Shown here: positions 39,150 through 54,523 of the stretch, piece after piece
How the letters are laid out: each line of letters starts with the position of its first letter
Numbering within the stretch: position 1 is the stretch's first letter
From: Bosea sp. 124
Lineage (GTDB): Bacteria > Pseudomonadota > Alphaproteobacteria > Rhizobiales > Beijerinckiaceae
Reading direction: 5' to 3'
Assembly (NCBI RefSeq): GCF_003046175.1
Contig: NZ_PZZM01000001.1
Coordinates: 1,373,001 to 1,437,000, forward strand
Length of the DNA: 64,000 nucleotides
Made by a program: the position numbers and the translations under genes
The notes under the pieces: model-generated
Database searches by the model: none
What the model was told of the DNA's origin: nothing
The model's input: the letters and a program-made list of their open reading frames with translations, nothing else

Positions 39150-40154
39150 ATGATCGTGAATCGCCGGACGCTGCTGGCTGGTGCCGCGGCATCGCTTACC
39201 CTTCCCGCACCCGCCGTTTGGGCCCAAACCAAACCGATCACTTTTGCGATCCAATATGGCCTCCCATACCTGAATTTTATCGTTGCGGAGCGCCTCGGCC
39301 TGTTCACCAAGGCGGCCGAAAAAGCCGGCGTACGCGACCCCAAGATCAACATCGTGCGCCTGAGCGGGCCCACCGCGATCTCCGAAGGCCTGATCAGCGG
39401 CAATGTGCAGATCGGCGCGCTCGGCACGCTGGGCCTGCTGATCGCCCATGAGAAGACACGGCGCGCCTATGATCTCGGCGGCCTCAGCGCCTACTGGAAG
39501 GGCGTCTATACGCTCTATGCCAACGATCCCGCGATCAAGTCGCTCAAGGACATCCGGCCCACAGACAAGATCGCGACGCCGGGGCCGACAAGCTCGCAGG
39601 CGATGATCCTGCGCCGCGCGGCCGAACAGATCTTCGGACCGGGCCAGGCCCTTCGTTTCGACAAGCAGATCGTCTCCCTGCCCCATCCCGACGCGGTCGC
39701 CGCGCTCACGACCGGCAACATCGTGCAAGTCTACTTCGCGCTGTCGCCCTTCTCCGAGTATCTCGCACGGCAGCCGAACGTGCATGTGATCGGCACGACG
39801 ACCGAGTACAACCCGCCCAACATGACCAACGGCGTGGTCGGCGTGCTCAGGAAGTTCGTCGAGGAGAACAAGGAGCTCTCCGCTGCGGTGGTCGCGGCGC
39901 TCGACGAGGCCGGACGCTTCATCCAGAGCGAGATCAAGGAAACCGCCAAGATCTACACGGCGGCAGAGCCGAGCAAGCTCTCGGACGAGGAGATGATCAA
40001 GGTCATCGAGAACAACCGCCTCCAATACACGACCGAGCCGAACGGCATCATCGATACCGCCAACTTCATGGTCAAGCTGGGCCAACTGAAGGCCGCGCCG
40101 GCCCGCTGGCAGGATGTGTTCTTCCCGCCCGTGAACCAGGGCGCCGGCAGCTAG
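39150..40154 (+). CDS. ABC transporter substrate-binding protein, NMT1/TauA type
   Basis: 334 residues with a twin-arginine leader (VNRRTLLAGAAASLTLPAPA) cut near residue 26. The mature start TFAIQYGLPYLNFIVAERLGLF and the later VQIGALGTLGLLIAHEK are typical of the nitrate/sulfonate/pyrimidine-precursor receptor family. It is followed by the matching ATPase and permease, giving a complete three-gene importer. The ligand is probably a small anionic organic compound processed by the downstream RraA-rich operon. Confidence 0.92.
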   Translation: MIVNRRTLLAGAAASLTLPAPAVWAQTKPITFAIQYGLPYLNFIVAERLGLFTKAAEKAGVRDPKINIVRLSGPTAISEGLISGNVQIGALGTLGLLIAHEKTRRAYDLGGLSAYWKGVYTLYANDPAIKSLKDIRPTDKIATPGPTSSQAMILRRAAEQIFGPGQALRFDKQIVSLPHPDAVAALTTGNIVQVYFALSPFSEYLARQPNVHVIGTTTEYNPPNMTNGVVGVLRKFVEENKELSAAVVAALDEAGRFIQSEIKETAKIYTAAEPSKLSDEEMIKVIENNRLQYTTEPNGIIDTANFMVKLGQLKAAPARWQDVFFPPVNQGAGS

Positions 40155-40158
40155 CGCC

Positions 40159-40983
40159 ATGGCTCTGGCAATGGCGCGCGAGGTGATGGACGCGGAGCTG
40201 CAACAGGTCGTCACCCCCCTGCTGAGCGTCCGTGACGTCACGCTGCAGTATCAGACGCGGCGGCAGATCGTCACGGCGACCTACCGGGTCTCCTTCGACG
40301 TCAGGCGGCACGATCGTTTCGTGCTGCTCGGACCATCGGGTTGCGGAAAGTCGACGCTGCTCAAGGGCATCGGCGGGTTCATTACTCCGGTCGAGGGCGA
40401 GATCAACCTCGGCAGCCGGCAGATCACCGGCCCCGGCGCCGATCGGATGATGGTTTTCCAGGAGTTCGACCAGCTCCTGCCCTGGCAGACCGTGCTCGGC
40501 AACGTCATGTTCCCGATGCGCAAGACCGGTCGTTTCCCGCGCTCGGAATGGAAGGACCGTGCGATGCGCGCGGTCGAGAAGGTTGGGCTCGCGAAGTTCG
40601 CCGACAGCCATCCCCATACCCTGTCGGGCGGCATGAAGCAGCGCGTCGCCATCGCACGCGCGCTCGCCATGGAGCCGGACATCCTGCTGATGGACGAGCC
40701 CTTCGCGGCACTCGACGCGCTGACCCGCCGGCGCATGCAAGACGAGCTGCTCGAGCTCTGGAACGACATCCGCTTCACTCTCGTCTTCGTGACGCACTCG
40801 ATCCAGGAAGCGATCATCATCGGCAGCCGGATCGTGGTGATGACCCCCCATCCCGGCCAGATCCGCGCCGAACTCGATGCCACGCCGTTCAAGCAGGAGA
40901 ATGCCGGCAGCGAGGACTTCATGGCGTTCAACCGCAAGATCAACGGCATGCTCTTCGGCGAGGAGAAGATCGCACATGGGTAG
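40159..40983 (+). CDS. ABC transporter ATP-binding protein, TauB/SsuB type
   Basis: 274 residues. Walker A LLGPSGCGKST (about residues 56-66), Q-loop VFQEFDQLLPWQT, signature LSGGMKQRVAIARALAMEP, Walker B ILLMDEPFAALD and switch His in VFVTHSIQEA. It starts four bases after the receptor stop. It powers the NMT1-type importer. Confidence 0.95.
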   Translation: MALAMAREVMDAELQQVVTPLLSVRDVTLQYQTRRQIVTATYRVSFDVRRHDRFVLLGPSGCGKSTLLKGIGGFITPVEGEINLGSRQITGPGADRMMVFQEFDQLLPWQTVLGNVMFPMRKTGRFPRSEWKDRAMRAVEKVGLAKFADSHPHTLSGGMKQRVAIARALAMEPDILLMDEPFAALDALTRRRMQDELLELWNDIRFTLVFVTHSIQEAIIIGSRIVVMTPHPGQIRAELDATPFKQENAGSEDFMAFNRKINGMLFGEEKIAHG

Positions 40984-40991
40984 TCAGATCG

Positions 40992-41897
40992 ATGGCTGAC
41001 GCGATGCACCCCACGCGAGCCCGCACCCGCTTCACCGAATTGCCGGGGCGCCCGAGCATCGAGCACAAGACGCTCGACGCCGCCTCCATCGGCGAAATCG
41101 TGCGCGATGTCGGGCTCTGGCAACGCGCCCTGGCGCATACGCCGCTGCGCCGCGGGCTGGTGCTGATCGCGCTCGGCATCCTATGGGAAGTCTACGCCCG
41201 CTTTGCCGACAATCCGCTGATGTTTCCCTCGCTCAGCGAGACGCTCACGGCCTGGGCCACCGACATGTCGAGCGGCGTCCTGCTCTCGGCCGTCGGAAAT
41301 TCAGTGCGCGTGCTGCTGATCGGCTACGGCACAGCCGTGCTGCTAGCCGCCGTGCTGACCACGCTTGCGATCTCGACACGGATCGGGACGGACCTGCTGG
41401 CGACTCTGACGGCGATGTTCAACCCATTGCCGGCGATCGCGATCCTGCCGCTGGCGCTGCTGTGGTTCGGCCTCGGGATCGAGAGCCTGATCTTCGTGAT
41501 CGTCCATTCGGTGCTGTGGGCGGTCTCGCTCAACGCCTTCACGGGCTTCCTCTCGGTGAGCCAGACGCAGCGCATGGTCGGCCGCAATTACGGGCTGGGC
41601 GGCGTGCGCATGGTGATCGCGATCCTGATACCGGCGGCGTTTCCCTCGATTCTCGCCGGGCTGAAGATCGGCTGGGCCTTCGCGTGGCGCACGCTGATCG
41701 CGGCCGAACTCGTCTTCGGCGTATCCGGCAGCTCGGCCGGTCTCGGCTGGTACATCTTCCAGAACCGCAACGCGCTGGAAACCGCGCATGTCTTCGCCGG
41801 CCTCTTCACGGTGATCGTTATCGGACTGATCGTCGAGGGGGTGGTTTTCCGGAGCATTGAGGCGGCCACGATCCGGCGCTGGGGCATGCAGGCCTAG
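40992..41897 (+). CDS. ABC transporter permease, TauC/SsuC type
   Basis: 301 residues from ATG 40992. Six helices and the BPD_transp_1 EAA loop (VSQTQRMVGRNYGLGGVRMV). The cytoplasmic N-terminus of about 50 residues is long for the family. It ends four bases before the Bug-type receptor gene. The reading frame is open far upstream inside the ATPase gene, but that part is out of frame with any family resemblance. Confidence 0.93.
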   Translation: MADAMHPTRARTRFTELPGRPSIEHKTLDAASIGEIVRDVGLWQRALAHTPLRRGLVLIALGILWEVYARFADNPLMFPSLSETLTAWATDMSSGVLLSAVGNSVRVLLIGYGTAVLLAAVLTTLAISTRIGTDLLATLTAMFNPLPAIAILPLALLWFGLGIESLIFVIVHSVLWAVSLNAFTGFLSVSQTQRMVGRNYGLGGVRMVIAILIPAAFPSILAGLKIGWAFAWRTLIAAELVFGVSGSSAGLGWYIFQNRNALETAHVFAGLFTVIVIGLIVEGVVFRSIEAATIRRWGMQA

Positions 41898-41900
41898 GCG

Positions 41901-42923
41901 ATGACGGAGCTTCCCGCCAAATCCCGCCAAGAGTCAGAAAGGACCGATATTTTGGACAGGCGAACCTTCCTCGGCGGCATGACCACCGCATGCGCGGTGC
42001 TGAGCCACGGGCTCGCGCAGGCGCAGGACTATCCCGCTCGCCCGGTCACCATCCTCGTTCCGTTCGCAGCGGGCGGCGGCCAGGACATCTTCATGCGCCT
42101 GATCTCCCAGGGCGTCAGCGACGCGCTCAAGCAGCCGCTCGTCATCGATAACCGCGTCGGCGGGGCCGGCAACATCGCGGCAGGCGCCGTCGCGCGCGCC
42201 GCGCCGGACGGATACACCCTCCTGCTGGGCACCGCCGCAACCCACGGCATGAACCAGGCGCTCTACAAGACGCTCAATTTCGACGCGCAGACGAGTTTCG
42301 AACCCGTCGCCATGCTGGCGGAGGTGCCTCTCGTCCTCGTCGTCAACCGCGATGTTCCCGCCAAGGCGGTCGCCGAGCTCGTCGCCTATCTCAAAGCCAA
42401 TCCAGGCAAGATCAACTACGGCTCCTCCGGCGTCGGCGGGCCGCTGCATCTCGCCGGCGAGCTGTTCAAGACGGCGGCCGGGGTCGAGGCCGTGCATGTG
42501 CCGTTCCGCGGGTCGGCGCCGGCGATTACGGAGCTGCTCGCCGGACGCCTGACCTTCATGTTTGATACCTTCGCTGCCACCGAACCCTATATCCCGGACG
42601 GCAGCCTGCGGCGCCTGGCGGTCGCGTCCGGAACGCGCGCCTCCAACGCGCCGGACCTGCCGACCATGGCCGAGGCCGGCACTCCGGTGGAGGCCTATTC
42701 CTGGAGCGGCGTCTTTGCGCCGGCAGCAACCCCGAAGCCGATCGTCGAGCAACTTCGCAAGGCCTTCAGCGACGCCGTGGCGAATCCGGCGCTGAGGTCG
42801 CGCCTGTTCGAGATCGGCTTCCTGCCCACGCCCGGCAATCCCGACAGCCTGCGCGCACGGGTCGGCACCGAACTCGTCAAATGGAAGCACGCGGCCGAGA
42901 CGGCCGGGCTCAAGCCCCAGTAG
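41901..42923 (+). CDS. Bug/TctC-family periplasmic binding protein
   Basis: 340 residues with a Tat-type leader (LDRRTFLGGMTTACAVLSHG) after a 17-residue N-tail. Bug family hallmarks: YPARPVTILVPFAAGGGQDI, VIDNRVGGAGNIAAGAVARA, YTLLLGTAATHGMNQALY, INYGSSGVGGPLHLAGELFK and LPTMAEAGTPVEAYSW. Bug proteins normally serve tripartite tricarboxylate transporters, but no TctA/TctB is in the window. Placed directly after an ABC importer, it may be an alternative receptor or a sensor. Confidence 0.92.
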   Translation: MTELPAKSRQESERTDILDRRTFLGGMTTACAVLSHGLAQAQDYPARPVTILVPFAAGGGQDIFMRLISQGVSDALKQPLVIDNRVGGAGNIAAGAVARAAPDGYTLLLGTAATHGMNQALYKTLNFDAQTSFEPVAMLAEVPLVLVVNRDVPAKAVAELVAYLKANPGKINYGSSGVGGPLHLAGELFKTAAGVEAVHVPFRGSAPAITELLAGRLTFMFDTFAATEPYIPDGSLRRLAVASGTRASNAPDLPTMAEAGTPVEAYSWSGVFAPAATPKPIVEQLRKAFSDAVANPALRSRLFEIGFLPTPGNPDSLRARVGTELVKWKHAAETAGLKPQ

Positions 42924-43017
42924 CGCGAGAGCCAGGCCTCCCCCGAGGACTGCTCTTCAAACGCAATGCGAAAATCCGGACCAGCATCGGCCGGACCATG
43001 ATGCCCAGGAGATAGCG

Positions 43018-43701
43018 ATGTCGTCATCCCATCCAGCGCTCGATCCCGAGCTCGTCCCGTTCGAACACCACCAGGTCTCGACGCTGTCGGACGCGATGTT
43101 CGCGCTCGGCCTCAAGGACACCGCACTCGGGCCGACCGTGCGCCTGCTCGTCGGCAAGCGCATTCTAGGCCGGGCGCGGACGATCGGTCGTGTGCCCCTG
43201 CCCTCGAATGGCGGCCAGCAGGAGATCAAGCCCGAGTTCTCGCTGGCGATCCAGGAGGTAATCGACGGTTGCGGGCCGGGCTCAATCATGGTGATCGCGA
43301 CCCAGGGCATCGCCACGCATGCGAACTGGGGCGGCAACATGGCGACGCGGGCGAAAGCCGTCGGGGCGCTCGGACTCATCACCGACGGTGCGATCCGCGA
43401 CCTCGAGGAGATGGAGCCGCTGGGCATGACGATCTTCGCCCAGGGTACCTCCCCGCGCGCCGGTCATTTCCGCTTCGCCACCGCGATCAGCAACGAGCCG
43501 GTGATCTGCGCGGGTGTGCTGATCCGCCCCGGCGACATCATCGTCGGCGACGCGGACGGCGTCATCGTCATCGATCCGGCCCAGGCCAGCGCGATCGCGG
43601 CAAAGGCCGGCGAACTCGTCAAGATCGAGGAGGAAATGCAGGCCTTCATGCGCACGGGCGCCCAGCTTCAGGAAGCTGTGCGCCGGTACAAGGTGCGCTG
43701 A
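43018..43701 (+). CDS. RraA/HMG-aldolase family protein, paralogue 1
   Basis: 227 residues. RraA fold with the metal/substrate motif ITDGAIRD, giving R127 and D128, the Arg-Asp pair needed by HMG/CHA aldolases; upstream HANWGGNMATRAKAVGALGL is the G-rich loop. The C-terminal GVLIRPGDIIVGDADGVIVI is the family strand. HMG/CHA aldolases split 4-hydroxy-2-oxo acids to pyruvate plus a keto acid. The most divergent of four paralogues in this cluster. It closes the ABC/Bug operon and converges on the LysR gene. Confidence 0.87.
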   Translation: MSSSHPALDPELVPFEHHQVSTLSDAMFALGLKDTALGPTVRLLVGKRILGRARTIGRVPLPSNGGQQEIKPEFSLAIQEVIDGCGPGSIMVIATQGIATHANWGGNMATRAKAVGALGLITDGAIRDLEEMEPLGMTIFAQGTSPRAGHFRFATAISNEPVICAGVLIRPGDIIVGDADGVIVIDPAQASAIAAKAGELVKIEEEMQAFMRTGAQLQEAVRRYKVR

Positions 43702-43711
43702 AAATGACCCT

Positions 43712-44644
43712 TCAGCGCGCGCGGGGCGGGGACGGCGCGGGCTCATCCTGCCGGCGCCAGCGGGGAAGCCCGAAGTCGCAGGCTTCGCGCGCCAGTTCGG
43801 CGATCCGGCGGCTGACGGCATCATTGCGATGAACGGCAAGATACGCGAGCGGTGGCAGAACGAGGTTGGTCCGGACCGGCCTCAGATAGCCCTCCTCCTG
43901 ATAGGAGGAGAAATAGGCCGTCGGCAGGTAGGTGATGCCGAGCCCGGCGCTGGCCATCTCCGCAAGGGCGATCATGCTGTTGCAGGTGATGGTGTTAGCC
44001 GGCTTGATTCCGATCGCGGCCAGCGCCTGCAGCAAGTTGAGGTGCAGCAAGGAGCCCTCGGCATAGGTGAGCAGCGGCAGTTCCATCAGGCGCTCGATCG
44101 ACACGATCTCTCGCGACGATCTGATCAGCGCGGGATTGCACATCCACTCCGACTCCAGGAAGTCGAGCTGAACCGTCGGGAAGGCGTTGTCGCTCTTCGG
44201 AGCGGGGCAGATCACCATGTCGAGGCGATGGGTGACCATCTGCTGGCGCAGATTGATCGTGAGGTCGATCTTCGGCTCGAGGATGATGTCCGGGTAGAGG
44301 TGCTTGATCTCGGCGATCAGCGCCGGCAGCCAGGTCAGCGCAACCATCTCCGTCACGCCGAAACGGAAGCGGCCGGCGTAGGAAACGTCGCTGCCGACGC
44401 GGCGCACCACGTTCTGCTGCAGATCGAGCATCTGGACGAAATCGTCGATCAGCTCCCGCCCCTTGATGGTAAGCTGGGTCGTCTTGTTGCTCCGGTCGAA
44501 GATCTCGATCGACAGATACTTCTCGAGCTCGGCGATCCGCTTGGAGACCGTCGACTGGGTCGTGTTGAGCCGCTTCGCCGCAGCGTGGAAGCTGCCCAGC
44601 TTGCTGATCCAGTAGGCGGCTTCGATCTGCTTGAAGGTCAACAT
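43712..44644 (-). CDS. LysR-family transcriptional regulator
   Basis: 310 residues. N-terminal LysR helix-turn-helix: LTFKQIEAAYWISKLGSFHAAA and RLNTTQSTVSKRIAELEKYL. Effector domain follows (FRFGVTEMVALTWLPALIAE). Minus-strand start 44644 faces a 263-base region containing two dyads, upstream of the second RraA paralogue, so it likely activates that operon in response to an intermediate. It is flanked on both sides by RraA-type genes. Confidence 0.93.
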   Translation of the reverse strand: MLTFKQIEAAYWISKLGSFHAAAKRLNTTQSTVSKRIAELEKYLSIEIFDRSNKTTQLTIKGRELIDDFVQMLDLQQNVVRRVGSDVSYAGRFRFGVTEMVALTWLPALIAEIKHLYPDIILEPKIDLTINLRQQMVTHRLDMVICPAPKSDNAFPTVQLDFLESEWMCNPALIRSSREIVSIERLMELPLLTYAEGSLLHLNLLQALAAIGIKPANTITCNSMIALAEMASAGLGITYLPTAYFSSYQEEGYLRPVRTNLVLPPLAYLAVHRNDAVSRRIAELAREACDFGLPRWRRQDEPAPSPPRAR

Positions 44645-44810
44645 GGCCAGTCCCTTTTTACCCCGCGCCGGTCGAATAGAAAAAGCAATCGATCAAGTCA
44701 ATTTCGTTTGCGTTTTCGAGCGCGCTTCGTGGGCCACATGGCTTCGTTTTATCGATTTATGAGCCAGATTACAGAGCCAAGGACCAAGAATCCGCAAGCG
44801 CTTTCATCAT

Positions 44811-44820
44811 GCAAATTTGC
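44811..44820. promoter_or_regulatory. Perfect 10-bp palindrome in LysR/RraA intergenic region
   Basis: GCAAATTTGC lies between the divergent LysR gene and the RraA operon, 88 bases before ATG 44908. GATAAT (44825-44830) just after it could be a -10 hexamer. It could be a LysR recognition half or an accessory site. Confidence 0.4.
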
Positions 44821-44848
44821 GATCGATAATCCTGAATTAAATTCCCTT

Positions 44849-44873
44849 TATGACATGCAACCGGCATGTCATA
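44849..44873. promoter_or_regulatory. Strong operator candidate: 25-bp inverted repeat
   Basis: Arms TATGACATGC and GCATGTCATA are exact reverse complements separated by AACCG. The repeat ends 34 bases before the ATG of the second RraA paralogue, in a position suited to transcriptional control. It is the best dyad in the whole cluster. Ligand unknown: the LysR protein is the nearest candidate, but the form also suits a GntR/FCD-type dimer encoded elsewhere. Confidence 0.7.
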
Positions 44874-44907
44874 GACCGGTCCACCCAATCAAGGCGTTCC
44901 TGGCGGC

Positions 44908-45687
44908 ATGACATCCACGATCGAGACGGAACTCGCCGCCTATGAGGGGCGGCTCCTGGGGACGATCCCCGTCGATCGCATCCACGCGATCGCGTTCGAG
45001 CGGCCCTCGGCGGATCTGGTGGCGCGCTTCCGGAGTCTGCCCGACCTGACCTCCGCAATCGCCGACATTCTCGATGAATACGGCGTCGATTCGGCGATCC
45101 CGACAACGGCTCTGCCGCCGATCGCGGCCGGTCAGCGCATGGTCGGCCCTGCCGTCACCGTCAAGCATGGCGCGGCCAGGCTGACGAGCGGCTACAATAT
45201 CGCGAACAAGACCTCCCCCCGCCTCGGTGCGCTGGATGCCGTGACGCTGTCGCAGCCCGGGGACGTCATGGTGATCGACGGCAGTGCGTGCCCTGCCGCC
45301 TCGAACATCGGTGGCATCATGGCGACCGCTGTGGCCGCGAACGGTTTTGCCGGCGTCGTCGTCGACGGCTGCGTCCGCGACACCGACACCATGCGCCGCA
45401 TGGGCCTTCCGGTGTGGGCCCGCGGCGCGACGCCGCGCACCGGCAAGCACCGCTTCGAACTGCTTGCCTTCAACGGCGTCGTCGAGATCGCCGGCGTCCA
45501 GATCCGTCCCGGCGACCTGATGCTCGGCGATTCAGACGGCGTCATCGTCGTGCCGCTCGCGATCGCCGCCGATGTCCTGGCGCGGGCGGAAGAGGTTGCG
45601 GCGAAGGAGAAATCGCTGATCGACGCGCTCAGCACCGGCGCCTCGGCCGCAGAGACGGCCGCCATCGTGGCGCCAGAGAAATGGTGA
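44908..45687 (+). CDS. RraA/HMG-aldolase family protein, paralogue 2
   Basis: 259 residues, about 35 longer at the N-terminus than its neighbours (SADLVARFRSLPDLTSAIAD). The catalytic signature is VVDGCVRD with R157 and D158. The loop ASNIGGIMATAVAANGFAGV and strand GVQIRPGDLMLGDSDGVIVV confirm the family. First gene of the main operon, behind the 44849 inverted repeat. Its stop overlaps the next gene by seven bases. Confidence 0.86.
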   Translation: MTSTIETELAAYEGRLLGTIPVDRIHAIAFERPSADLVARFRSLPDLTSAIADILDEYGVDSAIPTTALPPIAAGQRMVGPAVTVKHGAARLTSGYNIANKTSPRLGALDAVTLSQPGDVMVIDGSACPAASNIGGIMATAVAANGFAGVVVDGCVRDTDTMRRMGLPVWARGATPRTGKHRFELLAFNGVVEIAGVQIRPGDLMLGDSDGVIVVPLAIAADVLARAEEVAAKEKSLIDALSTGASAAETAAIVAPEKW

Positions 45688-46607
45688 GCGCGGCAGGCTC
45701 CGGTTACCGGCTCGGCTTCGTCGGCTTCGGCGAGGCGGCCTTCTCGATCGCGAGCGGGCTGCGCGAGGCGGGCCTCGACGGCATGGCGGCCTTCGATGTG
45801 GCAGCAGACCGCGAGCCTTTCCGGACGCGCATACACCAGCGCGCGAACGAGGCCGGGGTCACGCTTCTCGATGGACCCGAGGGCCTCGCCAGGGCCGAGA
45901 CGGTGTTCGTGCTAGTGCAGCCCTCGGCTGCGATGGCGGTGGCGCGAAGCTGCGCAGCCCATGTCGGGCCGGAAGCGCTCTATGTCGATCTGACCTCGCT
46001 TGGGCCGACCGACAAAGCGGCCGTCGGCGCGCATGTGACCGCTGCCGGCCGCCGCTTCGTCGATGCCGCCATCCTCGGCTCGGCACCGGCCTCGCGCCAC
46101 CGCGTGCCGATCGTCGCGGCCGGGCCGCAGGCGGAGGAATTCGCCCGCCGCTTTGCTCCCTACGGCATGGATATCTCGCCGGTCGGCGAGCGCTTCGGCG
46201 CTGCCGCCGGGATCAAGATCGTCCGCAGCGTGCTCGCGAAGGGGCTCGAGGCTCTCTATGTCGAAGCGCTGATCGCCGCCCGGCGCATGGGTGTCGAAAC
46301 CGAAGTCCTGCAGAGCTTCTGCGCCTTTCTCGATGCCCGTCCCGCGCTCGACACCGCCGCGATGCTGGTTCGCTCGCATGTCCCCCATGCCGGCCGCCGT
46401 GCCGACGAGATGCGCATGTCGCGCGCTGCCGTCATCGAGGCGGGGCTCGACCCGCTGATGACCGACGCCATCGTCCGGCTGATGGAGCGGACGGCCGCTA
46501 CCGGTGTCGTCGAGAGCAGCGGCGGGAACCAGCCGCCGACCCTCGACGCCGCGCTCGACATTCTCGACGCGGCCCTCGTTTCCGCGACCAAGCCTTCCGT
46601 TTCCTGA
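45681..46607 (+). CDS. NAD(P)-binding dehydrogenase with DUF1932 domain (6PGDH/HIBADH superfamily)
   Basis: 308 residues from ATG 45681 (GTG 45684 is also possible). N-terminal Rossmann motif YRLGFVGFGEAAFSIASGL; hydroxyacid-dehydrogenase-like VDAAILGSAPASRHRVPIVA and the helix with the catalytic-Lys position (GAAAGIKIVRSVLAKGLEAL, Lys in GIKIVR). DUF1932 C-terminal helices follow. Relatives oxidise beta-hydroxy or L-threonate-type acids. Between two RraA paralogues it probably generates the oxo acid that an aldolase or decarboxylase then uses. Confidence 0.85.
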   Translation: MVSAAGSGYRLGFVGFGEAAFSIASGLREAGLDGMAAFDVAADREPFRTRIHQRANEAGVTLLDGPEGLARAETVFVLVQPSAAMAVARSCAAHVGPEALYVDLTSLGPTDKAAVGAHVTAAGRRFVDAAILGSAPASRHRVPIVAAGPQAEEFARRFAPYGMDISPVGERFGAAAGIKIVRSVLAKGLEALYVEALIAARRMGVETEVLQSFCAFLDARPALDTAAMLVRSHVPHAGRRADEMRMSRAAVIEAGLDPLMTDAIVRLMERTAATGVVESSGGNQPPTLDAALDILDAALVSATKPSVS

Positions 46608-46627: not shown

Positions 46628-47302
46628 ATGTCCACATCCGCTCCCCTCCCTCGCCGCGTCTCCCAGGAGACCTGCCAGGCGTTGCTCGCCTATGGCTCCG
46701 CCACCGTTTTCGAGGCTCAGGGGCGCCGCGGCGCCTTCGCCTCGGGGATCAAGCCGGTCGACGACGCCATGACGATCGCCGGAACCGCCTTCACCTGCGA
46801 GTGCCCGCCGAACGACAACCTCACCCTGCACGCCGCCCTCAAGATGGCGCAGCCTGGCGACGTGCTCGTCTGCGATGCGCATGGCTGCACCGAGCAAGGC
46901 ATGTTCGGCGACGTGATGGGGAGTTGCGCCGTGGGCGCCAAGCTCGCCGGCCTCGTCACCGACGGCGGCGTGCGCGACTCGGCCACGATCTGCGAGGTCG
47001 GCTTTCCGGTCTTCGCCGGCGGCATCTGCATCAAGGGCACGATCAAGGAGACGCTCGGCACGCTCAGCCAGCCGATCGTGCTTGGCGGCGTGCTGGTCCG
47101 GCCGGGCGACGTGATCATCGGCGATGGCGACGGACTGGTGGTGGTGCCGTTCGAGACGGTCGATGCCGTGCTCGTGGCCTGCAAGGCGCGGGCCGACAAG
47201 GAAGCCGCGATGAAGCAGCGCTTCGCCTCGGGCGAGACGCCCTGGGATGTCTACGCCCTTGGTGACCTGGTGACGCGCAAGGGGCTCTCCTCCCCGGTCT
47301 GA
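46628..47302 (+). CDS. RraA/HMG-aldolase family protein, paralogue 3
   Basis: 224 residues. Catalytic pair R116-D117 in VTDGGVRD; conserved upstream block FTCECPPNDNLTLHAALKMA and loop EQGMFGDVMGSCAVGAKLAG; C-terminal GGVLVRPGDVIIGDGDGLVV. It is closely similar to paralogue 4, sharing long identical blocks, which points to a recent duplication. The extended C-terminus after the family core (TPWDVYALGDLVTRKG) matches PMD/LigK-type aldolases better than E. coli RraA. Confidence 0.88.
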   Translation: MSTSAPLPRRVSQETCQALLAYGSATVFEAQGRRGAFASGIKPVDDAMTIAGTAFTCECPPNDNLTLHAALKMAQPGDVLVCDAHGCTEQGMFGDVMGSCAVGAKLAGLVTDGGVRDSATICEVGFPVFAGGICIKGTIKETLGTLSQPIVLGGVLVRPGDVIIGDGDGLVVVPFETVDAVLVACKARADKEAAMKQRFASGETPWDVYALGDLVTRKGLSSPV

Positions 47303-47316
47303 CCGCCCCTCAGAGC

Positions 47317-47340: not shown

Positions 47341-47369
47341 ATAGATCCGAAACGAATGAAGGACTGGAC

Positions 47370-48344: not shown

Positions 48345-48364
48345 TACCCAATACGGAGCTGGCG

Positions 48365-49555
48365 ATGAAGATCGCGCGTATCGAAACCTTCTTCTTCCAT
48401 CCAGGCAGCGGCAAGAACCTGCTGTTCTGCCGCATCGAGACCGATGACGGGCTCTATGGCTGGGGCGAATCCTATGTCGGCGTCAAGAAGGAGAAGGTCG
48501 TCGACGACTATATCCGTGCCATGGCGCCCTACTTGATCGGGCGCAGCCCGCATAATATCCGCCATGCCGCGCAGGTGATGTTCGACGACTTCGCCATCCG
48601 GCGTTCCTCGGTCGACTTCTTCTGCGCCTGGAGCGCGATCGAACTGGCGATGTGGGACATCGTCGGCAAGAAGGCCGGGCTGCCTCTCTACAACCTGCTC
48701 GGCGGCGCCTCGCGCGAAAAGGTCCGCGTCTACGCCAATGGCTGGTGGTACGGCGTGACCAATATCGAAACGACGGTGGAGCGGGCGCTCCAGGTCAAGG
48801 AGATGGGCTACACCGCGCTGAAATGGGACCCGTTCCCCGGGCCGTGGCGCACCTTCATCACCCGCGAGGAAGAAGATTACGCGGTCGCCAACGTCAAGGC
48901 GATGCGCGAGGCGCTCGGCCCCGACATGGACCTGCTGATCGACGCCCATCGCCGCGTCGCTCCGCATCACTCCATCCGGGTCGCAAAGCGGCTCGAGGAG
49001 TACGGCATCTTCTGCTATGAGGAGCCCTGCCTCTCCGACAATCTCGACCTCGTCGCGGAAGTCCGCCGCTCGATTTCAACACCCGTCGTCACCGGCGAAA
49101 CCCTCTACACCAAGGAGGATTTCGCACGGGTCTTCGAGAAGCGCGCGGCCGATATCCTCAATCCGGACATTTGCGCCGTCGGCGGCCTCCAGCAGATGCT
49201 CGACATCGCGGCGATGGCGCAGCCGCATGCGATCGCAATCAGCCCGCACAACTACAACAGCACCATCGTCGGGCTGGCTGCGACGGTGCATCTCTCGGCG
49301 ATCATCCCGAACTTTCTCATCGCCGAGTGCTTCATCAACCTGACCGAGGCCTGCGACGAGATCGGCTCGCCCGGCCTGACCGTGAAGGACGGCTGGGTCG
49401 ACCTGCCGACAGCCCCCGGGCTGGGGGTCGACATCGATGTCGAGCGCCTGCGCAAGCGACCCTACAAGGATTTCCCGCACAAGGACATGCGCCAGTACTG
49501 GGAAGAATTCCCGCGCAAGAACTACGTCTGGGGCACCGCCAACGTCACCCGATGA
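48365..49555 (+). CDS. Enolase-superfamily sugar-acid dehydratase (mandelate racemase/GalD-type)
   Basis: 396 residues from ATG 48365. Metal ligands D193 (LIDAHRR), E219 (CYEEP) and E245 (TGETLY) are in place. H195 forms the D-x-H motif of galactonate and mannonate dehydratases, and H295 (SPHNYNS) is the C-terminal acid; the second strand has K153-x-D155. These point to acid-sugar dehydration yielding a 2-oxo-3-deoxy acid. Exact substrate is uncertain. The product class is what an RraA-type aldolase could cleave. Confidence 0.9.
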   Translation: MKIARIETFFFHPGSGKNLLFCRIETDDGLYGWGESYVGVKKEKVVDDYIRAMAPYLIGRSPHNIRHAAQVMFDDFAIRRSSVDFFCAWSAIELAMWDIVGKKAGLPLYNLLGGASREKVRVYANGWWYGVTNIETTVERALQVKEMGYTALKWDPFPGPWRTFITREEEDYAVANVKAMREALGPDMDLLIDAHRRVAPHHSIRVAKRLEEYGIFCYEEPCLSDNLDLVAEVRRSISTPVVTGETLYTKEDFARVFEKRAADILNPDICAVGGLQQMLDIAAMAQPHAIAISPHNYNSTIVGLAATVHLSAIIPNFLIAECFINLTEACDEIGSPGLTVKDGWVDLPTAPGLGVDIDVERLRKRPYKDFPHKDMRQYWEEFPRKNYVWGTANVTR

Positions 49556-49573
49556 ACCTTCTCTTACCGGACA

Positions 49574-50227
49574 ATGACCATGACAAATCTCAGCTATCTT
49601 GAAGATTACGCCTCCGTGGCTTCCGCCACCGCCCATGAGGCCATGGAGCGCCGCGGTGCGCTCGATTCCGCCATCAAGCCCGTCCGGCGCGGCATGAGGG
49701 TGCTGGGACCGGCCTTCACCTGCGTCTGCCCGCCGGGCGACAACCTGACCTTGCACGCCGCGCTGAAGATGGCGAAGGCGGGCGACGTCATCGTCTGCGC
49801 CTCGGCAGGCTTCACCGAGCAGGGCCTGTTCGGCGACGTGATGGCGAGCTGCGCCAAGGGCAAGCAGATCGCCGGCCTGGTGGTGGACGGCGGCGTGCGC
49901 GACGGCGCGACCATCGCCGAGATCGGCTTTCCGGTCTTCGCGCGCGCGCTCTCGATCAAGGGCTCGGTCAAGGAAACGCTGGGCGCGCTGAACAAGCCGA
50001 TCGTTGCCGGCGGGATGCTCGTGGAACCGGGCGATCTCGTCATCGGCGACGACGACGGCGTCGTGATCGTGCCGCAGGCGGAGATCGCGGCCATCGCCGT
50101 GGCATCCAAGACGCGCGAGGAGAAGGAGGCCCGTTTCCGCCGCGAACTGCTGCAGGGCAAGACCACCTGGGACATGCTCAACCTGAGCGAGCTGCTCCGC
50201 AAGAAGGGCATCCAGCTCGACATCTGA
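49574..50227 (+). CDS. RraA/HMG-aldolase family protein, paralogue 4
   Basis: 217 residues. R109-D110 in VVDGGVRD; FTCVCPPGDNLTLHAALKMA and EQGLFGDVMASCAKGKQIAG are near-identical to the blocks of paralogue 3. It ends with KTTWDMLNLSELLRKKG. ATG 49574 is followed two codons later by a second ATG at 49580, so the start is uncertain by two residues. Confidence 0.88.
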   Translation: MTMTNLSYLEDYASVASATAHEAMERRGALDSAIKPVRRGMRVLGPAFTCVCPPGDNLTLHAALKMAKAGDVIVCASAGFTEQGLFGDVMASCAKGKQIAGLVVDGGVRDGATIAEIGFPVFARALSIKGSVKETLGALNKPIVAGGMLVEPGDLVIGDDDGVVIVPQAEIAAIAVASKTREEKEARFRRELLQGKTTWDMLNLSELLRKKGIQLDI

Positions 50228-50276
50228 CGCGGCCCAGCGCCGCCCGACCTTGCCGCGACTGCACCGGAGACAAGCC

Positions 50277-50669
50277 ATGAGCCGACTGAAGCCGATCGAA
50301 TACGCCGATGCCTCGGCGGCCGTCCGCGCGGTCTATGACGACATCAAGACCTCGCGGAACCTCAAGGACGTGAACAATTTCTGGAAATACCTGGCGCATG
50401 ATCCGGCCACGTTGCGCCGGACCTGGGAGAGCGTGAAGGAGGTGATGGCTCCGGGCGCGCTCGACCCGCTGGTCAAGGAAATGATCTATGTCGCGGTCAG
50501 CACGACCAATAGCTGCGCCTATTGCATCGCCAGCCATACCGCCGCCGCCCGCAACGCCGGAATGACGGACGCGATGTTCGGCGAGGTCATGGCGGTGGTC
50601 GGCATGGCCAACGAGACCAATCGCCTCGTCAACGGCTACCGTGTGCCGATCGACGCGTCACTCGAGTGA
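50277..50669 (+). CDS. Carboxymuconolactone decarboxylase/AhpD-like protein
   Basis: 130 residues from ATG 50277 (GGAG upstream). All-helical AhpD-like fold with the redox motif NSCAYCIASH (C-x-x-C-x-x-x-H) near residue 81. Proteins with this motif are usually alkylhydroperoxidase-like thiol enzymes rather than true decarboxylases. It may protect the downstream flavin and molybdenum enzymes or act on a peroxide, but no substrate can be read. Confidence 0.85.
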   Translation: MSRLKPIEYADASAAVRAVYDDIKTSRNLKDVNNFWKYLAHDPATLRRTWESVKEVMAPGALDPLVKEMIYVAVSTTNSCAYCIASHTAAARNAGMTDAMFGEVMAVVGMANETNRLVNGYRVPIDASLE

Positions 50670-50757
50670 ACGGCTTCGCGCGAGTGAAGGCATTTTCGAC
50701 CGCCGTCCCCGTCGCGCGAGCGCCCGGGGCGGCAATGCCGGCGGATGGATTGCGATC

Positions 50758-52149
50758 ATGAGCTATGGCGACACCGCGACCGTCGTCCAGGATCTCCGCG
50801 CGCATTTCGGCGAGCGGATCTCGACGGCGGAAGCGATCCGCCGGCATCATGGCGAGGATCTCTCCTATCTGCCGACGATGCTTCCGGATGCCGTCGTCTT
50901 CGTGGAATCGACCGCAGAGGTGCAGCGCGTCGTCGCTGCCTGCGCCAAGGCGCGGGTGCCGATCGTGCCCTACGGCGTCGGCAGCTCGATGGAAGGGCAA
51001 ATCCTCGCCGCTGCCGGTGGCGTCAGCCTCGACATGTCGCGGATGACCCGGATCGTCGCCGTGCACGAGAGCGATTTCGACGTGGTGGTCGAGCCCGGCG
51101 TGACGCGCAAGAGCCTCAACGAACATCTGCGGCATACCGGCCTGACCTTCCCGGTCGACCCCGGCGCCGACGCCTCGATCGGCGGCATGGCATCGACGCG
51201 CGCCAGCGGAACCAATGCGGTGCGCTACGGGACGATGCGCGAGAACGTGCTGGCGCTGGAAGTGGTGCTCGCCAATGGCGAGATCCTGCGCACCGGCAGC
51301 CGCGCGCGCAAATCCTCGATGGGCTACGACCTCACCAAGCTCTTCGTCGGCGCCGAGGGTACGCTGGGCGTGCTGACCGAAATCACCCTCCGGCTCCACC
51401 CGGTGCCGGCGGCCATTTCCGCAGCGGTCTGCCCGTTCGACAGCCTCAACGGCGCCGTCGATACCTGCATCGCCACGATCCAGAGTGGCGTGCCGATCGC
51501 CCGGATCGAATTCCTCGACGACATCGCGATCCAGGCCTCGAACAGCTATTCGAAGATGAACCTCGTCGTCGCGCCGACCCTGTTCCTGGAGTTCCACGGC
51601 ACGGAAGCCGGCATCCGCGAGCAGGCCGAGATCGTCGAGGCCATCGCGGCGGAAAACGGCGGGCGCGGCTTCCAGTGGGCGACGCAGCGCGAGGAGCGCG
51701 AGCGCCTGTGGAAGGCGCGCCACGACTCGAACCCGGCGACGCGCGCGATGCGTCCAGGCGCAGCCATGTTCGTGACCGATGCCTGCGTCCCGATCTCGGC
51801 GCTGGCGGACAATATGGCCGCGGCGCGCGCCGATGCCGACGCCTCGTTCCTGAAATTCAAGATCAACGGCCATGTCGGGGACGGGAACTTCCACGTCGCC
51901 TATCTCGTGATGCCCGATGCGCAGGACGAGATTGCCGAAGCGAAACGCCTGGCCGAGAATGTCGTGATGCGGGCTCTGGAATCGGGTGGAACCGCGAGCG
52001 GGGAACATGGCGTCGGGCTGGGCAAACTCAAATACATGCGCCGCGAACATGGCTATGGTGTCGAGGTCATGCGCAGCTTGAAACAGGCGCTCGACCCCCA
52101 CGCCATTATGAACCCGGGCAAACTCGGCATGAGCGCCGAGGCTGCCTGA
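50758..52149 (+). CDS. FAD-linked 2-hydroxyacid oxidase/dehydrogenase, GlcD-like
   Basis: 463 residues from ATG 50758. FAD-PCMH domain (PDAVVFVESTAEVQRVVAAC, VPYGVGSSMEGQILA, FPVDPGADASIGGMASTRAS) and FAD-oxidase C-terminal domain (FKINGHVGDGNFHVAYLV, SGEHGVGLGKLKYM). Acts on D-2-hydroxy acids such as glycolate or lactate and passes electrons to quinone or another acceptor. It is followed 16 bases later by the molybdoenzyme gene. Confidence 0.92.
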   Translation: MSYGDTATVVQDLRAHFGERISTAEAIRRHHGEDLSYLPTMLPDAVVFVESTAEVQRVVAACAKARVPIVPYGVGSSMEGQILAAAGGVSLDMSRMTRIVAVHESDFDVVVEPGVTRKSLNEHLRHTGLTFPVDPGADASIGGMASTRASGTNAVRYGTMRENVLALEVVLANGEILRTGSRARKSSMGYDLTKLFVGAEGTLGVLTEITLRLHPVPAAISAAVCPFDSLNGAVDTCIATIQSGVPIARIEFLDDIAIQASNSYSKMNLVVAPTLFLEFHGTEAGIREQAEIVEAIAAENGGRGFQWATQREERERLWKARHDSNPATRAMRPGAAMFVTDACVPISALADNMAAARADADASFLKFKINGHVGDGNFHVAYLVMPDAQDEIAEAKRLAENVVMRALESGGTASGEHGVGLGKLKYMRREHGYGVEVMRSLKQALDPHAIMNPGKLGMSAEAA

Positions 52150-52165
52150 CGGAAACGAGACCATC

Positions 52166-54523
52166 ATGCTGATCACGCCCGAGCAGCCGACCGTCACCAC
52201 GCATTGGGGCGTCTATCGCGCCCGGATGAAGGATGGATCGGCGGTCGCGCTCGAGCCCTATGAGCACGATCCCGACCCCTCTCCACTGGGCGGCGCGATG
52301 ATCGGCGCGCTCGACGATGGCTGCCGGATTAGGCGACCTTCGGTCCGGGCCTCCTTTCTTGCAAAGGGCGCGGCGGCCGGCGGCGCCGGGCGGGGCGGTG
52401 AAGCCTTTGTCGAGATCGACTGGCCGCAGGCGCTCGACCTTGTCGCGCGCGAGGTCGCACGCGTTCGCTCGACCCATGGCAATGGCGCGATCTTCGGTGG
52501 CTCCTATGGCTGGTCGAGCGCCGGCCGCTTCCACCATGCGCAGAGCCAGGTTCATCGCTTCCTGAACACTGTCGGCGGCTATGTTCGTTCGATCTCCAAT
52601 TACAGCTTCGCCGCCGCCGACGCGATCCTGCCGCATGTGCTCGGCGACAAGCGGGGCCTGGACGCCGGGCACACCACCTGGCGCATGCTCGCCGGCCATG
52701 CCGAGCTGATCGTCATGTTCGGCGGGACGCCGCATAAGAACGCCCAGGTCGGCTCGGGCGGCATCAGCCGCCATCTGCTGCGCGAGGGCATGACCGCCTG
52801 TCGGGACAAGGGGGCCTCCTTCGTCTGCATCAGCCCGATCCGCGACGATGCCATGGCGGAACTCGAGGCGCGCTGGATCGCGCCGCGCCCCAACTCGGAC
52901 GTCGCGCTGATGCTGGCCCTGGCGCATACCATGATCGCGGAAGGCCTGCAGGACAGTAAATTCCTGGCGCGGTACACGACGGGCTTCGAGCGATTTGCCG
53001 GCTATGTAACCGGCGCTACCGACGGCTTGCCGAAGACGGCCGAATGGGCGGAGGCCATCTCGGGCATCCCCGCACAGACGATCCGCTCGCTGGCGCGCGA
53101 GATGGCGAAGCGACGCACGATGATCATGATGTCATGGTCGCTGCAGCGGGCGGAGCATGGCGAGCAGCCTTACTGGATGGCGATCGCTCTGGCGGCGATG
53201 ATCGGCCAGATCGGCCTGCCCGGAGGCGGCTTCGGGTTCGGCTATGCTTCGGCCAACGGTGTCGGCAATGCCGTCTATCCGTTGTCCTGGCCAACCCTGC
53301 CGCAAGGCAGCAACGCCATCGCCGACTCGATCCCGGTCGCACGGATCGCGGACGCGCTGCTGCATCCAGGCGCGCCCTACGACTTCAACGGCGAGACGCG
53401 GCGCTACCCCGACATCAAGCTGGTCTACTGGGCCGGCGGCAATCCGTTCCACCACCATCAGGACATCAACCGGCTGATCGGGGCCTGGCGACGGCCCGAG
53501 ACCGTGATCGTCCACGAATCCTGGTGGAACGCCACGGCGCGGCATGCCGACATCGTCCTGCCCGCCAGCACCGCCATGGAGCGCAACGACATCGCAAGCT
53601 CGGCGCGCGACCGCATGATCGCGGCCTGCCATCCGATCAGCGCGCCGATCGGCGAGTCACGCAGCGACTACGACATCTTCGCCGACCTCGCCGACCGGCT
53701 GGGCAAGCGCGAAATCTTCACCGAAGGCCGCGACGAGGAGGGCTGGATCCGCCATTTCTACACGGTCGCGCGCCAGCGCGTTGCCGAGTACGGCATGGAA
53801 CTGCCGGATTTCGAGAGCTTCTGGAAAGCCGGCATCGTCACGCTGCCGGAACCGCCGGAGCAGCAGCCGCTCCTCGCCGACTTCATCGCCGATCCGCAGG
53901 CCCACCCGCTGAAGACGCCGTCCGGCCGGATCGAGCTCTTCTCGCAGACGATCGCCGATTTCGGCTATGATGACTGCCCCGGCCATCCGAGCTGGCTTGA
54001 GCCGCGAGAATGGCTCGGGGCGCCGCTCGCCAACCGCTTTCCGCTGCATCTGATTTCCAACCAGCCGGCAAGCAAGCTGCACAGCCAGTACGATAATGGC
54101 GCGCTGTCCCGCTCGACCAAGATCGAGGGTCGCGAGCCGCTGCGCATCCATCCTGACGACGCCCGGGCGCGAGGCCTGCGCGACGGCGACATCGTCCGGG
54201 TGTTCAACACGCGCGGCGCCTGCCTCGCCGGAGTGATCGTGTCGGATGCGATGATGTGCGGCGTGGTGCAGATGGCCACGGGCGCCTGGTACGACCCGCT
54301 GGAGCCGGGCCTCGTCGGCTCGCTCGACAAGCACGGCAATCCCAATGTGCTGACTCAGGACCGAGGCTCGTCGCGGCTCGGCCAGGCGACGATTGCGCAT
54401 TCCTGCCTCGTCGAGGTCGCCAAATACGACGCAGAACTGCCGCCGATCACCTGCTACGCGCAACCGCCACTGCTGCCGACCCCTGTGAAGCCAGGCGTCA
54501 TCGCCAAGACCGGCCTCGAATGA
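52166..54523 (+). CDS. Molybdopterin-dependent oxidoreductase, biotin sulfoxide/DMSO reductase family
   Basis: 785 residues. SYGWSSAGRFHHAQSQVHRF near residue 112 carries the Ser expected to bind molybdenum in DMSO/TMAO/biotin-sulfoxide reductases. bis-MGD-binding segments include FGGTPHKNAQVGSGG, GGNPFHHHQDINRL and VIVHESWWNATARHADIVLP. There is no N-terminal Fe-S cysteine motif and no Tat leader, so this is a cytoplasmic BisC-like enzyme. Placement in a catabolic operon behind a flavin dehydrogenase is unusual; it may reduce a sulfoxide or N-oxide substrate of the pathway. Confidence 0.92.
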   Translation: MLITPEQPTVTTHWGVYRARMKDGSAVALEPYEHDPDPSPLGGAMIGALDDGCRIRRPSVRASFLAKGAAAGGAGRGGEAFVEIDWPQALDLVAREVARVRSTHGNGAIFGGSYGWSSAGRFHHAQSQVHRFLNTVGGYVRSISNYSFAAADAILPHVLGDKRGLDAGHTTWRMLAGHAELIVMFGGTPHKNAQVGSGGISRHLLREGMTACRDKGASFVCISPIRDDAMAELEARWIAPRPNSDVALMLALAHTMIAEGLQDSKFLARYTTGFERFAGYVTGATDGLPKTAEWAEAISGIPAQTIRSLAREMAKRRTMIMMSWSLQRAEHGEQPYWMAIALAAMIGQIGLPGGGFGFGYASANGVGNAVYPLSWPTLPQGSNAIADSIPVARIADALLHPGAPYDFNGETRRYPDIKLVYWAGGNPFHHHQDINRLIGAWRRPETVIVHESWWNATARHADIVLPASTAMERNDIASSARDRMIAACHPISAPIGESRSDYDIFADLADRLGKREIFTEGRDEEGWIRHFYTVARQRVAEYGMELPDFESFWKAGIVTLPEPPEQQPLLADFIADPQAHPLKTPSGRIELFSQTIADFGYDDCPGHPSWLEPREWLGAPLANRFPLHLISNQPASKLHSQYDNGALSRSTKIEGREPLRIHPDDARARGLRDGDIVRVFNTRGACLAGVIVSDAMMCGVVQMATGAWYDPLEPGLVGSLDKHGNPNVLTQDRGSSRLGQATIAHSCLVEVAKYDAELPPITCYAQPPLLPTPVKPGVIAKTGLE

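What the first reader, a model, noticed from the sequence alone, without database searches (positions are those of the whole stretch)
39150..54523. Four RraA/HMG-aldolase paralogues interleaved in one catabolic cluster
Genes at 43018, 44908, 46628 and 49574 all keep the D-G-x-x-R-D pair needed for aldolase action. They alternate with a DUF1932 dehydrogenase, a QOR-type oxidoreductase, an enolase-superfamily dehydratase, an AhpD-like protein, a GlcD-like flavoprotein and a BisC-like molybdoenzyme, behind an ABC importer and a Bug receptor. One aldolase is normal; four in about 7 kb suggests a pathway with several successive 4-hydroxy-2-oxo acids, or a hetero-oligomeric aldolase. I know of no described pathway with this gene set.
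Basis: partly seen in the sequence, partly recalled or inferred. Interest (0 to 1): 0.85.

Follow-up and report, generated by a model that had tools for sequence, protein, structure and literature searches.

The report
Conserved acid-breakdown cluster with four RraA genes
A bacterium that fits the genus Bosea carries a rare but conserved gene cluster, probably for using an unidentified hydroxylated acid, that holds four related RraA genes of which two look like ordinary pyruvate-releasing aldolases and one looks like something different.

Summary
The four RraA genes are real and at the stated places. A LysR gene (43712-44644, minus) was missed; it splits RraA1 from the nine-gene operon RraA2-DUF1932-RraA3-QOR-dehydratase-RraA4-AhpD-GlcD-BisC. 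A second Bosea keeps all 15 genes in order (87-96% identity, dN/dS 0.06-0.14). Shinella megaplasmids keep all four RraA genes (62-74%), Siculibacillus three. 'All four keep the aldolase residues' is wrong as stated: RraA3 keeps all and RraA4 all but one of 11 checked HMG/CHA-aldolase positions, RraA1 fits an alternative motif, RraA2 fits neither, yet RraA2 overlaps the DUF1932 dehydrogenase gene. Elsewhere 8 of 17 sampled DUF1932 genes have an RraA gene within 5 kb. Best reading: breakdown of a polyhydroxylated acid by 'dehydrate then cleave' (dehydratase with RraA3/RraA4) and 'oxidise then cleave or decarboxylate' (DUF1932 with RraA2). Substrate unknown. Nine searches of open-licence papers showed no pathway with this gene set; one paper proposes a dehydratase-annotated enzyme working as a hydratase with an RraA-type aldolase in lignin-dimer breakdown. 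New variant of a known kind, moderate interest.

The parts
39150..40154 (+). Substrate-binding protein, NMT1/SsuA-like, of an ABC importer
   Evidence: PF13379 30.0 bits; SsuA family TIGR01728 57.8 bits, under its cut-off 163.5; 90% identical in a second Bosea, 63% in Shinella
40159..40983 (+). ABC transporter ATPase
   Evidence: PF00005 110 bits
40992..41897 (+). ABC transporter permease (start codon uncertain)
   Evidence: PF00528 40.3 bits in 40974-41897
41901..42923 (+). Bug/TctC periplasmic receptor (no match in the Shinella and Siculibacillus stretches)
   Evidence: PF03401 234.8 bits
43018..43701 (+). RraA1: RraA-fold protein, motif G-X20-R-D-X2-E; last gene of the transporter row here, directly after BisC in Shinella
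   Evidence: PF03737; residues; Shinella orthologue 64% at L093 18780-19436; no orthologue in Siculibacillus
43712..44644 (-).
   Evidence: PF03466 and PF00126; 91% in second Bosea, 48% in Shinella
44908..45687 (+). RraA2: non-canonical RraA-fold protein (G at 102, no acidic residue at 127, conserved C-terminal Trp), first gene of the main row
   Evidence: PF03737; model pLDDT 94.5 and PDB fold matches 3k4i, 5ir2, 3noj, 5x15
45681..46607 (+). DUF1932 beta-hydroxyacid-dehydrogenase-type NAD(P) enzyme; its ATG overlaps the stop of RraA2 by 7 nt
   Evidence: PF09130, PF03807, PF03446; overlap read; Lys aligned with Lys170 of E. coli GarR
46628..47302 (+). RraA3: HMG/CHA-aldolase-type, keeps all 11 checked active-site positions
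   Evidence: NF006731 202.3 bits over cut-off 179; residues
47370..48344 (+). QOR-type zinc-binding-dehydrogenase-family oxidoreductase (no match in the Shinella and Siculibacillus stretches)
   Evidence: PF00107, PF08240
48365..49555 (+). Enolase-superfamily protein of the galactonate-dehydratase type
   Evidence: PF13378, PF02746; keeps D183, H185, E209, E235, H285 of E. coli DgoD; 85% in Shinella, 81% in Siculibacillus, 62% in Azospirillum
49574..50227 (+). RraA4: HMG/CHA-aldolase-type, T145 replaced by S (A in Shinella and Siculibacillus)
   Evidence: NF006731 220.2 bits over cut-off 179; residues
50277..50669 (+). AhpD/CMD-family protein
   Evidence: PF02627 68.3 bits in 50250-50669
50758..52149 (+). 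FAD-linked D-2-hydroxyacid dehydrogenase, D-lactate-dehydrogenase (LDHD)-like
   Evidence: PF01565, PF02913; closest solved chain 8jdc D-lactate dehydrogenase E 4.8e-147
52166..54523 (+). BisC/DMSO-reductase-family molybdoenzyme, last gene of the row
   Evidence: TIGR00509 999.7 bits, just under the cut-off 1017.55; closest solved chain DMSO reductase 1eu1; 61% in Shinella and Siculibacillus

Best explanation
A conserved catabolic cluster for a polyhydroxylated carboxylic acid, apparently spread by horizontal transfer (patchy, on plasmids, in two classes; not tested by a tree of the cluster). The ABC importer (and Bug receptor) take the acid up. The enolase-superfamily enzyme removes water from a 2,3-dihydroxy acid to give a 4-hydroxy-2-oxo (2-keto-3-deoxy) acid. 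RraA3 and RraA4, class II pyruvate aldolases, cleave such acids to pyruvate plus a second carbonyl compound, with different substrate or isomer preferences. The DUF1932 enzyme, whose gene overlaps RraA2, oxidises a hydroxy acid to an oxo acid that RraA2 then handles, most likely by decarboxylation or another C-C or C-O cleavage rather than the ordinary metal-dependent aldol reaction. The LDHD-like flavoprotein oxidises a D-2-hydroxy acid intermediate. QOR, AhpD and BisC are accessory or unassigned. Shown: gene content, conservation, active-site residues, RraA3/RraA4 orthology, purifying selection. Inferred: every reaction, the order of steps, the substrate class.
For: Close gene spacing, including a 7-nt RraA2/DUF1932 overlap. 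Gene order conserved at 87-96% in a second Bosea, and in Shinella and Siculibacillus. In 72,556 plasmid records the dehydratase (E<=1e-80), RraA3 (E<=1e-50) and RraA4 (E<=1e-50) searches return the same 7 records, and RraA2 over 50% identity lies in those 7; in the 3 Azospirillum records RraA3 and RraA4 hit one and the same gene. RraA3 keeps all 11 checked aldolase positions, RraA4 all but T145. The dehydratase keeps all five E. coli DgoD catalytic residues (roles recalled). The DUF1932 protein keeps the Lys aligned with GarR Lys170 (catalytic role recalled). Beyond this cluster, 8 of 17 sampled DUF1932 genes have an RraA gene within 5 kb (about 0.08 expected from RraA density). RraA genes also sit next to or near other 2-hydroxyacid-dehydrogenase-type genes: ketopantoate reductase family in Azospirillum, D-2-hydroxyacid dehydrogenase in Rhizobium, FAD/Fe-S type in Methylobacterium. 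Precedent for non-aldolase chemistry in the family: FlDet, an RraA-family 2-keto-3-deoxy-hexarate dehydratase/decarboxylase (PMC8563752, passages and section 7).
Against: No member of this cluster is known here to have been assayed. The dehydratase is below the cut-off of all 15 NCBI families it hit. A published proposal has a mannonate-dehydratase-annotated enzyme add water, not remove it, before an RraA-type HMG aldolase (PMC12673573, passages), so the direction is open. D102 is lost in two rows of otherwise canonical groups (E in Siculibacillus RraA4, G in one of two aligned Shinella RraA3). Both DUF1932-RraA places that I looked into among the 8 are protocatechuate/gallate-type clusters, where I know of no job for such a dehydrogenase, and the 8 come from 6 genera, not 8. 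BisC, QOR and AhpD fit no step. QOR, Bug, AhpD and RraA1 are missing in some versions.
Confidence: 0.43

Rival explanations
1. Isozyme model (not exclusive with the best explanation): RraA3 and RraA4, and perhaps RraA1, act on the same kind of compound but on different stereoisomers or successive intermediates, so the pathway has two or three retro-aldol steps.
For: RraA3 and RraA4 form two separate orthologue groups (support 100/99 and 99/94), so their split predates that of the Bosea, Shinella and Siculibacillus clusters. They differ at position 145: T in 5 of 5 RraA3; S or A in 5 of 5 RraA4 and in G061's RraA4-like row. Both are under purifying selection.
Against: G061 and Azospirillum have a single RraA3/4-type gene beside the same dehydratase, though they may use a different acid; the Azospirillum gene has T145. 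No chemistry was tested.
Confidence: 0.35
2. Hetero-oligomer model: RraA2, lacking the usual motif, is a helper subunit that forms a mixed ring with RraA3/RraA4 and completes or regulates their active sites.
For: RraA2 is conserved (dN/dS 0.08) although it meets neither motif. E199 is kept in every row. Its C-terminal Trp is present in 53 of 59 family rows, the other 6 being gapped there.
Against: RraA2 sits next to DUF1932 also where only one RraA3/4-type gene exists (Azospirillum, G061). It keeps R123 and D124 in 58 of 59 rows, as an active enzyme would. Identity to RraA3/RraA4 is only 31-33%. No complex was predicted.
Confidence: 0.12
3. The cluster serves a side branch of aromatic or lignin-derived breakdown: the enolase-superfamily enzyme acts as a hydratase that makes HMG- or CHA-like acids, and RraA3/RraA4 are the aldolases. 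(Raised from 0.08 to 0.12, and the best explanation lowered from 0.45 to 0.43.)
For: RraA3 and RraA4 score over NCBI's CHA aldolase cut-off NF006731 (202.3 and 220.2 against 179). A proposed pathway for the lignin dimer DDVA pairs adjacent genes for a mannonate-dehydratase-annotated hydratase (UxuA) and an RraA-family HMG aldolase, and says the hydratase gene is strongly upregulated by DDVA (PMC12673573, passages). DUF1932 recurs near LigK-type genes.
Against: The genome has a separate cluster with oxalomesaconate tautomerase, PIG-L gene and a LigK scoring 377 and 367 bits. RraA3/RraA4 fail the stricter TIGR02798 cut-off (178.3 and 202.7 against 304.5) and branch apart from the LigK clade. None of the family-scanned genes in the cluster is a ring-cleavage enzyme.
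Confidence: 0.12

Closest known systems
[quoted passage not shown]
   Same: RraA fold; RraA3 keeps all 11 checked positions R40, N71, H75, D102, R123, D124, G144, T145, K147, R195, E199, RraA4 all but T145
   Different: Separate clade, below the TIGR02798 cut-off; sits with an enolase-superfamily dehydratase and no ring-cleavage gene
Proposed UxuA plus HMG aldolase step of DDVA breakdown in Paenibacillus B2 (PMC12673573, passages)
   Same: Adjacent genes for a dehydratase-annotated enzyme and an RraA-family aldolase
   Different: Proposed to hydrate an aromatic cleavage product; UxuA is not of the enolase superfamily (recalled); one RraA, no DUF1932, LDHD-like or BisC gene named in the passages
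FlDet, RraA-family 2-keto-3-deoxy-hexarate dehydratase/decarboxylase of Flavobacterium UMI-01 (PMC8563752)
   Same: RraA-family enzyme acting on a 2-keto-3-deoxy sugar acid, not by an aldol reaction
E. coli garD-garL-garR (galactarate) and dgoD-dgoA (galactonate) pathways
   Same: Logic of dehydratase, then pyruvate aldolase, then (gar) beta-hydroxyacid dehydrogenase; the dehydratase keeps DgoD's five residues, DUF1932 aligns with GarR
   Different: Aldolase role filled by RraA-fold proteins, no sugar-acid kinase gene among those annotated in the cluster, plus LDHD-like and molybdenum enzymes; GarD is not of the enolase superfamily (recalled)
E. coli RraA, inhibitor of RNase E
   Same: Same fold family
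   Different: E. coli RraA has R-Q where the four have R-D, and Ala at position 102; gene context here is catabolic

Membership tests
HMG/CHA (class II pyruvate) aldolase, D-X20-R-D type: RraA3 and RraA4 | D102-X20-R123-D124 and companion residues | tested here: met
   in the window proteins (RraA4 has S at 145); motif name recalled from Mazurkewich 2014 (not held); R123 role from PMC5065237 passages
HMG/CHA (class II pyruvate) aldolase, D-X20-R-D type: RraA3 and RraA4 | NCBI equivalog cut-offs NF006731 (179) and TIGR02798 (304.5) | tested here: inconclusive
   over the first (202.3, 220.2), under the second (178.3, 202.7)
HMG/CHA (class II pyruvate) aldolase, D-X20-R-D type: RraA3 and RraA4 | metal-dependent pyruvate release from HMG or CHA | not testable with these tools
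   needs an enzyme assay
RraA-like aldolase, G-X20-R-D-X2-E/D type: RraA1 | G at 102, R-D, acid at 127 | tested here: met
   window protein meets it; in its family G102 38, R-D 42 (one row gapped) and E127 39 of 43 rows; motif recalled
RraA-like aldolase, either motif: RraA2 | D at 102, or G at 102 with acid at 127 | tested here: not met
   window protein G102, T127; in the family G at 102 in 55, D at 102 in 1, E at 127 in 2 of 59 rows
RNase E regulator RraA (any of the four) | NCBIfam TIGR01935 (123.8) and NF006875 (136) cut-offs | tested here: not met
   52-71 bits
D-galactonate dehydratase-type enolase superfamily (48365-49555) | metal ligands D183, E209, E235 and acid/base H185, H285 of DgoD | tested here: met
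   alignment with E. coli DgoD; roles of the residues recalled
D-galactonate dehydratase-type enolase superfamily (48365-49555) | equivalog cut-offs NF010624 (311) and NF040790 (750) | tested here: not met
   250 and 263.7 bits: same superfamily group, substrate not assignable
BisC S/N-oxide reductase family (52166-54523) | TIGR00509 cut-off 1017.55 | tested here: not met
   999.7 bits, just under

The most novel reading that the evidence does not exclude
RraA2 and its coupled DUF1932 dehydrogenase form a two-gene 'oxidise, then cleave' unit with an undescribed, non-canonical RraA activity. The cluster would be a new pathway for a polyhydroxylated (perhaps branched or dicarboxylic) acid in which three or four RraA-fold enzymes take successive steps.
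Probability: 0.25. Interest if true: 0.7.

Novelty: new variant of a known kind. Interest (0 to 1): 0.5.

Why it matters
RraA-fold proteins are usually annotated as RNase regulators or HMG/CHA aldolases. A conserved cluster with three or four diverged members, one of them lacking the known motifs, marks a place where new RraA chemistry and an undescribed acid-degradation route may be found. The DUF1932-RraA neighbourhood, 8 of 17 in a phylum sample, gives a testable lead for a domain of unknown function that also occurs in aromatic-degradation clusters.

Tried and rejected
Rejected: one transcription unit for all four here (LysR on the minus strand intervenes; in Shinella all lie in one direction). 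Rejected: recent tandem copies (only RraA3/RraA4 are close, 59%). Rejected: decayed genes (dN/dS 0.060-0.140 for all 15 genes between two Bosea).

Led nowhere: a substrate from the dehydratase's solved relatives (the top five hits carry only general names such as mandelate racemase or putative dehydratase); DUF1932 in the literature (2 papers, unrelated by title and abstract); isosaccharinate, RraA-operon, sugar-acid and protocatechuate searches, except PMC12673573, opened for passages; promoter scan of 43600-45000 (no sigma-70-type site, 2 terminator-like sites against 1.0 in shuffles). Candidate substrates considered only from chemistry, with no sequence support: pentaric or hexaric acids, isosaccharinate, branched tetronates.

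Genus and wider screens were run with one protein each and strict E-values, so the frequencies are lower bounds: RraA3 in 67 genus genomes gave orthologues in the window's genome and G016, plus G061's RraA4-like gene at 56%; dehydratase in 3 of 397 order genomes and 1 of 398 phylum genomes, the window's own counted in both; RraA2 in 1 of 289 class genomes, its own.
Full report
What is there. The window is part of a 5.47 Mb one-contig genome. The RraA genes lie at 43018, 44908, 46628 and 49574 as reported. Annotating both strands adds a LysR gene at 43712-44644 on the minus strand; the plus-strand frame at 43829-44911 matches no Pfam family. This gives two rows of genes: importer-Bug-RraA1 (gaps at most 94 bp) and, after a 263-bp divergent intergenic region, RraA2-DUF1932-RraA3-QOR-dehydratase-RraA4-AhpD-GlcD-BisC with gaps of at most 88 bp. 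The DUF1932 ATG at 45681 overlaps the RraA2 stop.

Conservation. In G016 all 15 genes are found in the same order at 87-96% identity, with dN/dS from 0.060 (dehydratase) to 0.140 (DUF1932), so none looks decayed. In two Shinella megaplasmids checked in detail the order is SBP-ATPase-permease-LysR-RraA2-DUF1932-RraA3-dehydratase-RraA4-GlcD-SBP-BisC-RraA1. RraA1 is annotated there as a hypothetical protein; QOR, AhpD and Bug gave no match in the 25-kb stretches. Two further Shinella records give all four RraA genes and the dehydratase at consistent places. G332, which is Siculibacillus lacustris if its 307,818-base contig is that of P0026 (family Ancalomicrobiaceae), has the importer, LysR, RraA2, DUF1932, RraA3, dehydratase, RraA4, GlcD and BisC. 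Its best match to RraA1 is 38%, at the RraA2 place, so no RraA1 orthologue was found. A divergent Bosea cluster (G061) has dehydratase 81%, one RraA4-like gene 68%, RraA2 54%, two DUF1932 genes, a TctA gene and TctC-type receptors; its BisC (67%) lies further off. Two Azospirillum plasmids read in detail have dehydratase, one RraA4-like gene, a 'peroxidase-related enzyme' (annotation; no match to the window's AhpD), a TctC-type receptor, RraA2, DUF1932, TctB and TctA. G249 has only the dehydratase, 68%, on a 24-kb contig.

Rarity and co-occurrence. Among 5.8 billion proteins, searched through shared short words, RraA1 has 42 and RraA2 58 relatives at E<=1e-40. One is a 669,692-base contig of Allopusillimonas ginsengisoli, a betaproteobacterium, holding RraA1 57%, RraA2 53% and dehydratase 77%. 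In 72,556 plasmid records the dehydratase, RraA3 and RraA4 searches return the same 7 records; the three Azospirillum ones have one gene for both RraA searches. RraA2 gave 16 records at E<=1e-30, of which these 7 are the only ones over 50% identity. RraA1 occurs in 4, all Shinella.

Are they aldolases? The numbering is that of 3NOJ, whose printed residues agree with PMC5065237 (R40, N71, H75, R123, G144, T145, K147, R195 named in the passages read; D102, D124 and E199 recalled). RraA3 keeps all 11 positions checked; RraA4 keeps all but T145. RraA1 has G102 but acid at 127, which fits the second motif (recalled, Mazurkewich 2014; the passage read in PMC5065237 says that most homologues contain one of two motifs). 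RraA2 has G102 and T127; in 59 family rows E127 occurs twice. R123 and D124 stay in 58 of 59, so RraA2 is not simply dead. Its C-terminal Trp is in 53 of 59 rows, 6 being gapped there. Against tidy rules: one of two aligned Shinella RraA3 rows has G102, and Siculibacillus RraA4 has E102. An AlphaFold2 model of RraA2 (46 of the 59 rows given; pLDDT 94.5) matches 3k4i, 5ir2, 3noj and 5x15, so the fold is ordinary.

History. On a 43-row tree RraA3 (5 rows, 100/99) and RraA4 (5 rows, 99/94) are separate groups, apart from the LigK clade that holds 3NOJ and the genome's own LigK. The deepest joins are weak, and the joining of the RraA1 and RraA2 groups was flagged as a meeting of long branches.

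The DUF1932 link. A phylum sample of 150 genomes gave 18 DUF1932 genes in 14 genomes. Leaving out the window's own, 8 of 17 have an RraA gene within 5 kb (in 8 genomes of 6 genera), a ninth at about 8 kb, and 8 do not. The density expectation, from 13 of the genomes, is 0.08, but relatedness and shared aromatic clusters mean the 17 are not independent. I looked into 2 of the 8: the genome's own (tautomerase, PIG-L, LigK) and G844's (LigB, tautomerase, LigK, two amidohydrolases, a GFO/IDH oxidoreductase); both are protocatechuate/gallate-type. Four plasmid cases are DUF1932-RraA operons with no ring-cleavage gene annotated in the 7-8 kb shown on each side; two others have a CHA aldolase and, near it, ring-cleavage-pathway genes.

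Mechanism. The dehydratase keeps DgoD's catalytic residues and stands directly before an RraA4-type gene in each cluster listed above except G249's. That gives 'dehydrate, then cleave'. RraA2-DUF1932 gives 'oxidise, then cleave or decarboxylate'. The LDHD-like flavoprotein suits a D-2-hydroxy acid. This is inference from families; no substrate is assigned. Nine literature searches listed no pathway with this gene set (open-licence papers only, listings). The nearest in print that I saw is the proposed UxuA hydratase and RraA-family HMG aldolase of DDVA breakdown (PMC12673573, passages).

Noticed in passing
L099 2448-8903, L100 4914-9606, L102 6297-9017, L103 6992-8576: Small plasmid operons holding DUF1932 and an RraA gene, in three of the four with an amidohydrolase nearby and in two with an FAD/Fe-S dehydrogenase, in Methylobacterium, Priestia and Rhizobium; possibly a general unknown pathway.
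   Followed up: partly
L043 9732-14130 (own genome, near C1:4484000-4488000): A separate gallate/protocatechuate-type cluster with LigK, PIG-L, oxalomesaconate tautomerase, DUF1932 and a LysR gene; the role of DUF1932 there is unknown.
   Followed up: partly
L095 11273-11953 and L093 11273-11953; L089 17333-18247: Residue 102 varies within canonical groups: G in Shinella oryzae Z-25 RraA3 against D in S. sumterensis, and E in Siculibacillus RraA4.
   Followed up: no
L044 10628-11308 (own genome, about 20 kb beyond BisC): Another RraA-like gene with T instead of R at position 123, so probably not an aldolase of the known kind.
   Followed up: no
window 34214-38818: A family-5 solute-binding protein and two peptide-type permeases on the minus strand, beside a GntR gene on the plus strand, directly upstream of the cluster.
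   Followed up: no
window 54652-56241 and 56703-57464: A GntR-aminotransferase (MocR-type) regulator gene on the minus strand and a LysE-type exporter gene downstream of BisC.
   Followed up: no
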